A DNA stretch of 64,000 nucleotides from Psychrobacillus sp. FSL K6-2836 (lineage in GTDB: Bacteria > Bacillota > Bacilli > Bacillales_A > Planococcaceae): NCBI RefSeq assembly GCF_038003085.1, contig NZ_JBBOOM010000001.1:3720001-3784000 (forward strand), read 5' to 3'. The notes under the pieces are model-generated. The model searched no databases. It was given only the letters and a program-made list of their open reading frames with translations, and was not told where the DNA came from. Both the position numbers and the translations under genes were made by a program. This document shows positions 36,305-63,681 of this stretch, in pieces. Position 1 is the first letter of the stretch. Each line of letters begins with the position of its first letter.

Positions 36305-36331
36305 GCCTCACCCTAAAAGGTGGGGCTTTTA
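36305..36331 (+). terminator. Terminator after pyk
   Basis: GCCTCACC (36305-36312) pairs with GGTGGGGC (36319-36326), with one G-U pair, followed by TTTTA. Confidence 0.85.
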
Positions 36332-36376
36332 TTGAATGAAAAGAAGTAGCGTATTAGAATCTATTTATTAATACTA

Positions 36377-36505
36377 TTGATTTTCGTTTCAGGTGGACGC
36401 TTTCCGCGGGGTGAGCGATGAGCCGTCACCGTCGCTTGCGCGTCGATGTGATGCCTCATCTGTCTCACTCATCCCGGTGGAGTCGCCACCTTGCACTACA
36501 ATCAA
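36377..36505 (+). repeat. Repeat B copy after pyk
   Basis: From TTGATTTTCGTTTCAGGTGG through ACGCTTTCCGCGGGGTGAGC to GGAGTCGCCACCTTGCAC and TACAATCAA. The middle contains a GAGCGATGAGCC/… CATCTGTCTCACTC palindromic segment with a GACGGTGACGG-type stem. It is directly followed by element C in the same orientation. Confidence 0.85.
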
Positions 36506-36938
36506 TTAAGTGAGCAGTACTCAGCAGGAAGATTTTGCAGAGCCTATCGCTAAGATGATATCATTAGGCAGAGTGATTATAGTGATAAAACTTTCTGTAA
36601 TCGTTGTTGATTTAGAGATGCTATTATTTAGTGATAGATAGTGGGAAATTTAAAAAAATAGTAAGTTTTACTTAATAAAGAAGCAAAATAGCGACCGAAA
36701 TTGTAATTTAGGACACATACTCTATGAATAAGAAAGTTCTTTTCCCTAGTTATCCGAAAAGACACTTGCCTGTTTCTCAAAGTTGTAGAAGGGCGACGGA
36801 CAGACAAACGCCATAAGATTACCGAGAAAAGGGAGGCTGGTCGTGACGTCAGTCACGATCAGCCTCTCAAAAAATTATCCGATAATATTGTAGTAACAAG
36901 TCTGTCCAATGCCCGCTGGAAACGTTTGAAATAGGTTT
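36506..36938 (+). repeat. Element C, copy 1: long repeat ending in a nested inverted-repeat structure
   Basis: The first part (36506-36768) matches the copies at 53507 and partly 46632. The 167-nt structured part is 36769-36935. CCTGTTTC (36769-36776) pairs with GAAATAGG (36928-36935), and GGACAGAC (36798-36805) with GTCTGTCC (36900-36907). ATTACCGA (36818-36825) pairs with CGATAAT-type sequence near 36880. The central stem is GAGGCTGGTCGTGAC (36833-36847) with GTCACGATCAGCCTC (36852-36866). No protein-coding sense was found. Confidence 0.85.
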
Positions 36939-36981
36939 TGAGTTTAAATGGTGCTTAAGCTATTTCTAAAAGGAAGGTGAA

Positions 36982-46339: not shown

Positions 46340-46745
46340 AAATGAATACTGGGTTTACAGGACAATTAAGAATGAATAATACTACTGCTTTCCGTTTCAG
46401 GTGGAGAACAAAGGCTAAAAGCGCCACGTCGTGTGACAACGCCTTCGTGACCAACATCCTGTTGGCCTCCGCGGGCTTGGCTTCAGCCTCCTCGTCGCTG
46501 CGAAAACATATGCTCCTGCGGTTACTCGTCGCAAAGACATTGGTCAAACAAAGTTTGACTAATGTCTTTCCTGCGGGGTCTTCAGCTCAAGCTATCCCGC
46601 CGGAGTCGCCACTTTCCAATACAATCAACATAATGTGTAGTACTAAACTCAATGATTTGCCAGGGTATATCGCTTAGCCGATAGTAGCAGTCAAAGTTAT
46701 TATAGTGATAAAACCGTCTGACCTATTAGGTATACTATTTTATAA
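46340..46745 (+). repeat. Repeat B with an extended middle plus a truncated element C
   Basis: The flank TGAATACTGGGTTTACAG, then TTTCCGTTTCAGGTGG (46389-46404), a long centre, and end CGGAGTCGCCACTTTCC, AATACAATCAA (46618-46627). The centre carries a perfect hairpin: AAGACATTGGTCAAAC with GTTTGACTAATGTCTT around an AAA loop (near 46534-46568). From 46632 to about 46740 the sequence follows element C's first part (GTGTAGTACT, TTATAGTGATAAAAC) and then stops matching. An open frame through it repeats at 63147 and is not a gene. Confidence 0.75.
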
Positions 46746-53343: not shown

Positions 53344-53381
53344 AACTGAAAATAGTACTTTAAAGTATTAAACGTTACCCA

Positions 53382-53506
53382 TGATTTGCGTTTCAGGCGG
53401 ACGTTTTCTGCGGGGTGAGCGATGAACCTTCACCGCCGCTTCGCGTTCGTTGTGAAGTTTCATCTGACTCACTGATCCCGCTAGAGTCGCCTTTCACTAC
53501 AATCAA
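53382..53506 (+). repeat. Repeat B copy after coaE
   Basis: GATTTGCGTTTCAGGCGG (53383-53400), ACGTTTTCTGCGGGGTGAGC, then end CTAGAGTCGCC and CACTACAATCAA (53494-53505). The centre is close to the pyk copy (GAGCGATGAACCTTCACC), including the CATCTGACTCACTGATCCC arm. Followed by element C in the same orientation. Confidence 0.85.
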
Positions 53507-54057
53507 CTAGTGTGTGGTACTCCACTATAAGATTTAACATAGCTTATCGCTTGGATGAGAAGATTGGACAAATTTTAGAAAGTGATCAAATTATTTGTAA
53601 TCGCTTTTGAATTAGAAATGATATTATTCAATGAAAGTGGAAGAAAACAGATTTTCTTTTATACTAGTGGAAATAAAGAAAAGTAGTAAGTATTTACTAA
53701 ATAAAGAAGCGAAATAGCGAACGAAATTGCATCTTCGAGGCACGATGCGGGTCAGGCAGTCGTTGCGAAATGTTTTTTTATTTTGCGACGAGCTTTGCGC
53801 AGGAGCACCACGATGTCGCGTACTTAGACTGTCATCCCCTCTATGAATAGGATAGTGTCTTTTCTCTAGTTATCCAAAAATGCACTAATCTGTCTCTAAG
53901 TGTTATAGAAGGGTGACGGACAGACAAACGCCATAAAATTACCGATAGAAGAAGAGGCTGGTCGTGACGTCGTCACGACCAGCCTCTTAAAATTTTACTC
54001 GGTAATAATATAGCTACAAGTCTGTCCAAAGCCCTTCGGAAACGATTGAAACAGGTC
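53507..54057 (+). repeat. Element C, copy 2
   Basis: The nested structure spans 53889-54055, 167 nt. CTGTCTC pairs with GAAACAG at the base. GGACAGAC (53918-53925) pairs with GTCTGTCC (54020-54027). ATTACCGA (53938-53945) pairs with TCGGTAAT (53999-54006). The central 15-bp stem is GAGGCTGGTCGTGAC (53954-53968) with GTCACGACCAGCCTC (53972-53986), perfect. An extra stretch at about 53730-53838, absent from copy 1, carries the TTGCGACGA and GCAGGAGCA pieces seen in repeat B centres. Confidence 0.85.
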
Positions 54058-54222
54058 TAGTTCTTTTTAAGTTCCTGCGCTCTATTGAACCAATGATAAG
54101 TTATTTGAAAAGATCGACTTTTATATTCTGTATATTTGGGGCTACACAATACGTAAAATGTGTTATACTAATTCAAGGTTATAAAACAATAAGTATCACA
54201 TAGTTACAGGAGGACTTTTCTT

Positions 54223-62815: not shown

Positions 62816-63103
62816 ATGATGACGAATGTTATTCTTATTTTCATATTAATCATGTCGATAATCGCTTTTTTTGTAATGGGATACGATAAATCACAAGCAA
62901 GAAAACATGGACAGCGCATATCGGAAAAAACACTATGGACACTTGCGATTGTAGGAGGGGGAATAGGGGCATACATCGGTATGCAAATGTTTCGCCATAA
63001 AACGAAGCATACGAACTTTCGTGTTGGATTTTTAATGCTATTGATATTATATGCTTTCTTAATTTTCTACATATTAACAACAGACAGCTCTATTATTGCA
63101 TAG
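62816..63103 (+). CDS. ysdA: DUF1294 small membrane protein YsdA
   Basis: The 95-aa DUF1294 protein has three hydrophobic segments (about 3-22, 43-60 and 73-92). It also has the characteristic MGYDKSQARKHGQRISEKTL block near residue 22 and GGGIGAYIGMQMFRHKTKH near 47. ATG 62816 is used because AAGGAG lies six bases upstream; a TTG 62798 frame begins in the terminator. The gene after rplT is ysdA in B. subtilis. Function unknown. Confidence 0.88.
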   Translation: MMTNVILIFILIMSIIAFFVMGYDKSQARKHGQRISEKTLWTLAIVGGGIGAYIGMQMFRHKTKHTNFRVGFLMLLILYAFLIFYILTTDSSIIA

Positions 63104-63147
63104 GGATGTCTTTTTTTAGAGATAGGAAAGTGTATAAAAATGATCTG

Positions 63148-63376
63148 TGAACACTGGATTTGCAGCACTTTTAAAAATGAATAATATGACTGATTTCCGT
63201 TTCAGGTGGATGCTTTCCGTGGCCGTTGCCTCAGCCTCTTCGAGCGGAAAACATATGCTCATGCGATTACTCGTCGCAAAGATATTACCCAAACAAAGTT
63301 TGGCCAATGTCTTCGCTGCGGGGTCTTCACCTAACGCTTTTCCCACTGGAGTCGCCACCTTGCACTACCATCAATT
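63148..63376 (+). repeat. Repeat B copy after ysdA
   Basis: Flank TGAACACTGGATTTGCAG (63148-63165), then GATTTCCGTTTCAGGTGG (63192-63209). A centre with ACTCGTCGCAAAGATATT and AAACAAAGTTT related to the 46.4-kb copy follows. It ends with GGAGTCGCCACCTTGCACTA and CATCAATTATG. Element C follows in the same orientation. Confidence 0.82.
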
Positions 63377-63681
63377 ATGTGAGTAGTCCCAATTATTAGA
63401 TTTGGCAAAGCGTATTGCTTAGATATTAAGATTAGTACAAGTTCGAGAGTTTTCTCTATAAATAGGACAGTAGCTTTTCTCTAGTTATCCAAAACCGCAC
63501 TTACCTGTTTTTAAGAGTTGTAGGAGGGCGACAGATAGACAAACGCCATAAGATTACCGAAAAAAAGATGCTAGTTGGTTGTGACGGACGTCACAACCAA
63601 TAGCATCTCTAAAAATTCACTCGGTAATCATATAGCAAACATGTCTGTCCAAAGCCCTTCGAAAAGGATAGAAACAGGTTT
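63377..63681 (+). repeat. Element C, copy 3, with a different but still paired central stem
   Basis: The nested structure spans 63504-63678. CCTGTTT pairs with AAACAGG. AGATAGAC (63533-63540) pairs with GTCTGTCC (63643-63650) using one G-U type pair. ATTACCGA (63553-63560) pairs with TCGGTAAT (63621-63628). The central stem GATGCTA-TTGGTTGTGACG (63567-63586, one bulged G at 63574) pairs with CGTCACAACCAA-TAGCATC (63589-63607). Compared with copies 1 and 2 the stem has compensatory changes on both arms. Confidence 0.85.

What the first reader, a model, noticed from the sequence alone, without database searches (positions are those of the whole stretch)
36769..36935. Three-copy element of four nested inverted repeats with compensatory stem changes
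Copies at 36769-36935, 53889-54055 (both 167 nt) and 63504-63678 share four concentric inverted repeats around a central 15-20 bp hairpin. Seen directly: copy 2 and copy 3 have different central stems, yet both pair. At least three positions change on both arms (GAG/CTC versus GAT/ATC, CTG/CAG versus CTA/TAG, GTCG/CGAC versus GTTG/CAAC), and copy 1 differs by one G-U type change. Compensatory change implies selection on the fold, as in a structured RNA, or a cruciform/transposition substrate. All copies have the same orientation and follow a repeat B. I know of no named family with this architecture.
Basis: partly seen in the sequence, partly recalled or inferred. Interest (0 to 1): 0.72.

Follow-up and report, generated by a model that had tools for sequence, protein, structure and literature searches.

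The report
Structured mobile repeat behind gene terminators
The three repeats are copies of a gene-free mobile DNA element, present in many copies in the bacterial genus Psychrobacillus, that folds into a conserved nest of hairpins and lands right behind the stop signals of other genes, which could make it a bacterial counterpart of the short copied repeats of animal genomes.

Summary
The 170-nt nested hairpin is real and covaries: on 40 copies, 19 of 53 pairs change on both sides and 0 of 500 shuffles reach the score. It is no three-copy curiosity: the own chromosome has at least 105 places, all 19 genus genomes searched have matches, and so do two more genera of the family.

New here: the 5' end lies directly behind intrinsic terminators of other genes, in the same direction (38 of 43 in two regions of two genomes; shifted controls 0-1 of 43). 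Better-kept copies end in their own terminator, and 33 copies show no consistent target duplication. In another genus the core sits in elements with inverted termini and 9-bp duplications.

The site matches that of group II introns of the same genus. My preferred, unproven mechanism is SINE-like copying of the element's RNA at stalled replication forks. Scarce G-U pairs, and paired opposite cores in the other genus, argue for DNA-level roles. No transcript was examined; the driver enzyme is unknown.

The parts
36305..36330 (+). Host intrinsic terminator (hairpin plus T run) of the upstream gene; copy 1 begins behind it
   Evidence: Read directly; a like terminator is present in relatives that lack the element, such as G001
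36331..36968 (+). Copy 1 of the mobile element as a whole (5' module decayed, 3' end reduced to a short hairpin); limits inferred
   Evidence: Filled versus empty sites upstream of fxsA in 19 genomes
36378..36505 (+). Repeat B within copy 1
36690..36717 (+). Hairpin Y (decayed in this copy); family loop RAAATTGYATCTT
   Evidence: By eye
36768..36936 (+). Nested-hairpin core, copy 1
   Evidence: CM R1 170.1 bits; fold z -8.0 for 36790-36935
53380..53506 (+). Repeat B within copy 2
53740..53843 (-). Palindromic insert (weak Bacillaceae-1 RNA match) that interrupts copy 2 beside hairpin Y
   Evidence: RF01690 29.4 bits, below its gathering score of 35; compare
53888..54056 (+). Nested-hairpin core, copy 2
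   Evidence: CM R1 175.8 bits; fold z -10.7 for 53910-54055
63082..63117 (+). Host intrinsic terminator directly upstream of copy 3
   Evidence: the same T run in the orthologous site of G013, followed there by B-like sequence without the 5' module
63126..63190 (+). 5' module of copy 3 (GGAAAGTGTATAAAAATG plus hairpin), the start of the element
   Evidence: Profile hit E 5e-19
63191..63373 (+). Repeat B within copy 3
   Evidence: aligned region
63503..63679 (+). Nested-hairpin core, copy 3
   Evidence: CM R1 178.2 bits; fold z -10.1 for 63526-63672

Best explanation
Shown: the three sites are copies of a non-coding mobile element. In order it has a 5' module with a hairpin, often repeat B, a linker, hairpin Y, the nested-hairpin core and, in the better-kept copies, an intrinsic terminator at its 3' end. 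In Psychrobacillus its 5' end lies directly downstream of intrinsic terminators, in the terminator's direction, mostly in the sense that lies on the lagging-strand template, with no consistent target-site duplication. Inferred: it spreads through an RNA copy, as a bacterial SINE-like retroposon that borrows a reverse transcriptase, most likely of the group IIC intron type. The growing lagging strand stalls at the target terminator hairpin with its 3' end on the T run; the enzyme switches onto the U-rich 3' end of the element's RNA, copies it to its 5' end and returns to the template. This would explain site, direction, strand bias, the element's own 3' terminator and the lack of duplication. 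The nested core would be the enzyme-binding or 3'-end-protecting domain.
For: Mobility: in two 400-kb regions each of G000 and G013, 39 5' modules could be anchored on the left; 17 have a module at the orthologous site, 22 do not. Of the 20 of these 22 that were printed I read 8 as empty sites (7 of them ending in or at a host T run), 7 as reduced or decayed elements, 5 as unresolved. Target: 38 of 43 modules in these regions follow a terminator, shifted controls 0, 1 and 0 of 43, opposite strand 1 of 43 (modules shared by both genomes count twice); 43 of 52 in a first, partly selected set against 91 of 1500 random intergenic positions and 146 of 1153 past gene ends. Tandem copies behind another element's terminator (L008, L041, by eye). 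No duplication: no 7-mer offset recurs in 33 copies. Conservation stops at TTTTTCTTA, 9 nt past the terminator stem. Strand: both arms 95 of 105 with replication against 69 of 98 predicted terminators, p 0.0003. Group II introns of the genus: 5 of 5 5' ends printed lie behind a hairpin, 4 with a clear T run. Passages: IIC introns insert at intrinsic terminators, introns without an endonuclease domain prime from the replication fork (PMC4424553); group II enzymes switch templates end to end (PMC3898094). RT matches against element rows over 19 genomes: rho 0.48, p 0.039, not corrected for kinship.
Against: No transcript or cDNA was seen. Only 32 of 82 cores extend to the 3' end profile, and only 28 of 82 have a detectable terminator within 75 nt. 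The own genome has one RT match, a 360-aa frame with no D1-D4 intron match in its locus; G012 has 4 RT matches but 5 element rows. It is not shown that any RT acts on this RNA, nor how its 5' end is set. G-U exceeds A-C only 1.8-fold against 10 to 1 in tRNA. In genus g17 the core moves in DNA-type elements with inverted termini and 9-bp duplications, and 10 of 10 such elements of 650 bp or more in L201-L230 carry two cores in opposite orientation, which fits DNA-end recognition; this made me lower the odds of the RNA reading. A terminator-seeking DNA transposase could give the same site pattern.
Confidence: 0.36

Rival explanations
1. Non-autonomous DNA element (MITE) moved in trans by a DDE transposase. 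In genus g17 it is a MITE with inverted termini; in Psychrobacillus its ends changed and its transposase now prefers terminators, with no recognisable duplication left.
For: In g17, 18 of 18 terminus pairs in L201-L230 hold a core match (some of these sequences had gone into the profile); 10 of 18 have exact 9-bp duplications and 3 of 18 have one mismatch; 10 of 10 pairs of 650 bp or more hold two opposite cores. A decayed PF01609 transposase locus (L298) has termini 3 and 4 mismatches away from the MITE's and a 9-bp duplication; other PF01609 loci have termini CACTAGTGTTGCATTA, alike only by eye, with 9-bp duplications. Psychrobacillus ends share a weak inverted ATAAGAAA (by eye).
Against: 33 Psychrobacillus copies show no consistent duplication (repeats of one or two letters, such as T runs, were not counted); the one-sided, same-direction terminator rule and the strand bias are not typical of DDE elements (general knowledge).
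Confidence: 0.31
2. Single-strand DNA transposition by a Y1/HUH transposase (IS200/IS605- or REP/RAYT-like) that recognises the end hairpins and inserts behind a hairpin plus T run on the lagging template.
For: Hairpins near both ends, no duplication, oriented target, lagging-template bias; Y1 matches, one to three each, in 18 of 19 genomes, one in the own genome.
Against: No core in 27 Y1 loci, and only 1 of 27 with a 5' module and repeat B, more than 1 kb away; Y1 count unrelated to element rows (rho 0.16, p 0.50); G004 has no Y1 match but 25 element rows.
Confidence: 0.12
3. The paired changes are not mainly selection on a fold: template switching between the two arms of a palindrome repeatedly perfects it, and the element is otherwise an inert repeat.
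For: The apical hairpin is 828 Watson-Crick to 20 G-U and 8 A-C cells in 82 cores, with all four Watson-Crick types at one position; helices 4 and 5b show no G-U excess (19 to 25, 13 to 14).
Against: The outer stem, with about 150 nt between its arms, has different sequence but still pairs in the other genus, as does hairpin Y around a nearly constant loop (by eye); helix 3 has 49 G-U to 11 A-C, while unpaired C-to-T and G-to-A rates are equal (12.1% and 12.6%).
Confidence: 0.13
4. A host-useful RNA device: a second, insulating terminator or a 3'-end stabiliser, kept because it sits behind genes.
For: Position behind genes, own terminator in some copies, conserved fold.
Against: Empty sites: 8 read in the comparison of two species, and at the fxsA site 3 of 19 genomes have the full element and 2 a reduced one; it follows sites that already have a terminator; rows per genome range from 4 to 148 in one genus.
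Confidence: 0.08

Closest known systems
Group IIC (class C) introns
   Same: Insert directly behind intrinsic terminators in the terminator's direction (passage of PMC4424553); group II introns in the same genus do so (the class C label for these is my inference)
   Different: No intron domain match in Rfam searches of the window (gathering scores) or of copy 2 (E up to 10), no reverse transcriptase frame, does not begin GTGCG, ends in a terminator in better-kept copies
DDE-type MITEs (as found here in genus g17; IS4-like label recalled, from PF01609 neighbours)
   Same: Homologous core carried inside them (92.7 and 85.3 bits in L102 and L103; 18 of 18 terminus pairs)
   Different: Psychrobacillus copies have other ends, a terminator target and no 9-bp duplication
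bcr1-type repeats of Bacillus cereus
   Same: Intergenic, structured, mobile-like, many copies in one bacterial group (passages of PMC3446304; table passage in PMC2267715)
   Different: bcr1 is listed as 147-167 nt; sequences were not compared, and the primary paper was not held
REP/RAYT and IS200/IS605-type elements
   Same: End hairpins, oriented insertion, lagging-template bias (family features recalled)
   Different: No Y1 gene flanked by these ends in 27 loci; much longer than REPs
Eukaryotic SINEs
   Same: Non-coding, short, many copies, proposed to move as RNA with a borrowed enzyme
   Different: RNA step not shown; bacterial intrinsic terminator at the end instead of an A tail; no target duplication

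Membership tests
Group IIC intron | Insertion directly behind an intrinsic terminator | tested here: met
   38 of 43
Group IIC intron | Group II ribozyme domains | tested here: not met
   Only Bacillaceae-1 in the window at gathering scores; no intron family up to E 10 for 53400-54220
Group IIC intron | Intron-encoded reverse transcriptase in the element | tested here: not met
   No frame of 90 aa or more lies within the three intergenic elements of the window; introns without a protein exist, so this alone is weak
DDE-type MITE | Terminal inverted repeats with fixed-length target duplication, Psychrobacillus copies | tested here: not met
   No recurring direct repeat in 33 copies; only a weak inverted ATAAGAAA by eye
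DDE-type MITE | The same feature, genus g17 relatives | tested here: met
   10 of 18 exact and 3 of 18 one-mismatch 9-bp duplications, 5 of 18 with four or more mismatches
IS200/IS605 or REP/RAYT | Y1 transposase gene flanked by the same ends in the genome | tested here: not met
   No core in 27 Y1 loci of 18 genomes; one 5' module with B in L255, not flanking the gene
Rfam families | Match at or above the curated score over the core | tested here: not met
bcr1 | Sequence identity to bcr1 | not tested
   No bcr1 sequence was in hand; paper not held
SINE-like retroposon | Movement through an RNA intermediate | not testable with these tools
   Needs a marked-element assay

The most novel reading that the evidence does not exclude
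A bacterial SINE: a gene-free structured RNA whose own intrinsic terminator is its retroposition tail. It is copied back into DNA at replication forks stalled at other genes' terminators by a reverse transcriptase borrowed from group IIC introns, and it arose when a transcribed DNA-transposon remnant gained a terminator.
Probability: 0.25. Interest if true: 0.88.

Novelty: new variant of a known kind. Interest (0 to 1): 0.62.

Why it matters
High-copy, gene-free bacterial repeats are usually filed as MITEs or REPs moved as DNA. Here one conserved structured domain is found under two insertion regimes: inverted termini with a 9-bp duplication in one genus, terminator-directed without recognisable duplication in another. 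If the second runs through RNA it would be a bacterial analogue of SINEs and would show that intrinsic terminators serve as entry ports for retroelements beyond group IIC introns. The family also offers a natural experiment: matches per genome vary from 4 to 148 rows in one genus.

Tried and rejected
Named RNA family: rejected. Phage or plasmid origin: no match by blastn (phages, plasmids), although contig C4 of the own genome (70 kb) carries two copies. Y1 transposase as driver: tested by presence, count and flanks, not supported. Direct sequence link between the element and group II introns: profiles of core, 5' module and 3' end found nothing in ten RT loci; only repeat B matched, in L191. 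Autonomous partner with the g17 termini: ORFs of 13 stretches were listed and no transposase was recognised by eye between facing termini (no family search was run on them); 30 PF01609 loci gave one decayed copy with near-identical termini. My first, strict terminator finder caught only 20 of 52 modules and was replaced by a folding-based one applied equally to controls. The idea that repeat B in reverse is a second, diverged core (shared GGCGAC..AAAGC..GAAACG) is by eye only and untested. Counting all covariance-model rows as places was rejected: palindromes also hit on the opposite strand, and 32 of 139 rows were dropped for that reason. A tRNA control with printed structures gave nothing and was replaced by acceptor stems found by best pairing. 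Literature searches for the element, for its B motif as letters, for terminator-targeted MITEs and for bacterial SINE-like elements returned nothing recognised as this element from the listings; subscription papers are largely not held, so this is no proof of novelty.

Full report
What is there. The three window copies are real and close to the stated coordinates (window 36768-36936, 53888-54056, 63503-63679). Each is a long imperfect hairpin of nested stems whose inner about 146 nt fold with z between -8.0 and -10.7 against dinucleotide shuffles. On an alignment of 40 copies from the own genome, 92.7% of cells pair, 19 of 53 pairs have a change on both sides, and none of 500 shuffles reaches any of the five measures; sliding the partner by 1-3 columns drops pairing to 33-38%. 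A set of 92 distinct cores (82 Psychrobacillus, 10 from genus g17) shows T-A, C-G, A-T and G-C at the same apical position.

How many and where. blastn with copy 2 finds 40 near-full-length places in the own genome, plus 9 partial or opposite-strand rows. The covariance model R1 gives 139 rows; 32 were dropped as opposite-strand hits on the same palindromes, leaving 105 chromosomal places and 2 on contig C4. Only 150 of 2048 candidates were scored, so these are lower bounds. All 19 genus genomes searched have matches, 4 to 148 rows each, opposite-strand rows included and capped at 148. In the family search 36 of 261 genomes match, from 3 of 19 genera, the own genus included; that search used stricter filters that lose weak matches. 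The genus is Psychrobacillus by inference: 24 of 26 pattern hits in named species genomes are Psychrobacillus (the other two, a Desulfobacula and an Acidobacteriaceae bin, I take for chance without testing), and several contig lengths coincide. The two other genera are unnamed here.

The core is part of a larger element. Aligning 40 copies with flanks shows conservation over several hundred bases: a 5' module (AGAAAGTATATAAAAATG and a hairpin), repeat B, a linker, a hairpin Y whose stem varies while its loop (RAAATTGYATCTT) is nearly constant, the core, and a 3' hairpin followed by TTTTTCTTA. Of 82 Psychrobacillus cores, 44 have the 5' module, 44 have B on the same strand, 30 have both, 32 extend to the 3' end profile and 22 have both ends; a terminator within 75 nt downstream was detected by folding in 28. 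Between recognised ends the element measures 270-1010 nt. The window copies are worn: copy 1 has a decayed 5' module, copy 2 carries a palindromic insert resembling Bacillaceae-1 RNA (29.4 bits, below the family's threshold), only copy 3 has a 5' module found by the profile, and none of the three has the standard 3' end. No frame of 90 aa or more lies inside them.

It is mobile. Upstream of fxsA (copy 1) the 19 genomes differ: G000, G013 and G006 have the full element, G007 and G016 have reduced forms, G001 has a 48-nt spacer with the host terminator, and the other 13 lack it, some with unrelated inserts and one (G010) with B-like sequence in reverse. Comparing two 400-kb regions of G000 with the syntenic ones of G013 (92% identical in the first), 39 5' modules could be anchored on the left; the other genome has a module there in 17 cases and no recognisable module in 22. 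Of the 20 of these that were printed I read 8 as empty sites, 7 as reduced or decayed elements (copy 3 of the window among them) and 5 as unresolved. In 7 of the 8 empty sites homology ends in or at the T run of a host terminator. Right-hand junctions are not all clean: some bases of the empty site can be missing or changed.

It targets terminators. Of 52 5' modules from the first G000 and G013 regions plus selected loci, 43 follow an intrinsic terminator within 20 nt, against 91 of 1500 random intergenic positions and 146 of 1153 positions past gene ends. In the four 400-kb stretches alone it is 38 of 43, against 0, 1 and 0 of 43 at shifted positions and 1 of 43 on the opposite strand; modules shared by both species count twice, and the first stretch contains the window. 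Tandem cases have an element behind another element's terminator (by eye). Over 33 copies with both ends no direct-repeat offset recurs; repeats of fewer than three different letters were not counted. Conservation falls off sharply at both ends.

Strand. rRNA operons switch direction between 2.19 and 2.42 Mb, which places the presumed origin. Elements run with them: right of it 48 plus and 8 minus, left 47 minus and 2 plus. Against 69 of 98 terminator-like sites on the leading sense in the first 400-kb region, the right arm alone gives p 0.049 and both arms (95 of 105) p 0.0003; against 249 of 309 reading frames both arms give p 0.023. Five of the eight exceptions on the right lie at 3.95-4.15 Mb, possibly around the terminus; leaving that stretch out, a cut chosen after seeing the data, gives 45 of 48, p 0.001 and 0.025. 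The terminator figure rests on one region and the strict detector.

Relatives in another genus. In g17 the core sits in elements of about 300-730 bp with the terminus CACGTCTGTTGATTAACCATTT. Of 18 terminus pairs in 30 loci, 10 have exact 9-bp duplications, 3 have one mismatch and 5 have four or more. All 18 hold a core match, and all 10 of 650 bp or more hold two cores in opposite orientation, one near each end (a few of these sequences were among the 92 rows of the profile). One search found this independently of that profile for L203 (66 and 67 bits); weaker second cores appear in L090, L102 and L103. A decayed PF01609 transposase locus (L298) has termini three and four mismatches from the MITE's and a 9-bp duplication; other PF01609 loci have 9-bp duplications with termini such as CACTAGTGTTGCATTA, alike only by eye. 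So in g17 this looks like an IS4-type MITE (the IS family name is recalled, not returned by a tool).

How it most likely works in Psychrobacillus. Group II introns of the genus sit behind terminator-like hairpins at 5 of 5 intron 5' ends printed, 4 with a clear T run, as the literature says of group IIC (passages of PMC4424553). The element shares site, direction and strand preference but not the ribozyme or the protein. Its 3' end lies 9 nt past a terminator stem, where a terminated RNA would end (general knowledge). I therefore favour a SINE-like route: a nascent lagging strand stalled at the target hairpin, a group II type enzyme switching onto the U-rich 3' end of the element RNA (such end-to-end switching is described in passages of PMC3898094), and copying back into the chromosome. 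Shown: site, direction, lack of recognisable duplication, mobility, fold. Inferred: transcription, RNA intermediate, enzyme.

Results against this. The own genome has a single RT match, a 360-aa frame with an Intron_gpII match behind it but no D1-D4 match in its locus. RT matches correlate with element rows only loosely (rho 0.48, p 0.039, uncorrected), and G012 has four RT matches but five element rows. G-U cells exceed A-C 169 to 93 overall, 49 to 11 in helix 3 but 19 to 25 in helix 4; tRNA acceptor stems give 10 to 1 (30 stems, register chosen for best pairing). The equal unpaired rates (C to T 58 of 479, G to A 92 of 728) make strand mutation bias an unlikely cause of the excess. The near-absence of G-U in the apical hairpin suggests that palindrome correction or DNA-level pairing contributes. 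The two opposite cores in g17 fit DNA ends better than RNA.

Verdict. A real, structured, terminator-seeking mobile element without a name in what I could search. The nested hairpin is its conserved domain. Its mode of movement is open; RNA copying is the most interesting reading that survives, only slightly ahead of a DNA transposase, and it can be tested.

Noticed in passing
window 46399-46465 (+) and 53740-53843 (-): A Bacillaceae-1 RNA match (63.6 bits) and a weaker one (29.4 bits) that interrupts element copy 2; this 'RNA' may itself be another palindromic mobile repeat.
   Followed up: partly
L032 1468-2067 (G000:C1 near 1067475): A Y1 (RAYT-like by eye) transposase gene, the only match in the own genome; 11 genus genomes have one match, 7 have two or three, 1 has none; no element parts beside it in the own genome.
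   Followed up: partly
L192-L196: Group II introns of the genus begin GTGCG behind terminator-like hairpins.
   Followed up: yes
L201-L230, L203 especially: Genus g17 carries MITEs with 22-bp inverted termini and 9-bp duplications; the long ones hold two opposite copies of the nested core.
   Followed up: partly
window 36378-36505, 53380-53506, 63191-63373: Repeat B read in reverse shows the same GGCGAC..AAAGC..GAAACG order as the core, as if it were a diverged second core, like the opposite core of g17; seen by eye only.
   Followed up: no
L087, L088: Two genomes with only 4-5 element rows hold two cores side by side, next to what looks by eye like the same ATPase-like gene: possibly an old fixed copy pair.
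   Followed up: no
L138 (fxsA site of G015): An unrelated palindromic insert between two copies of the gene terminator, at the site where copy 1 sits in the own genome.
   Followed up: no
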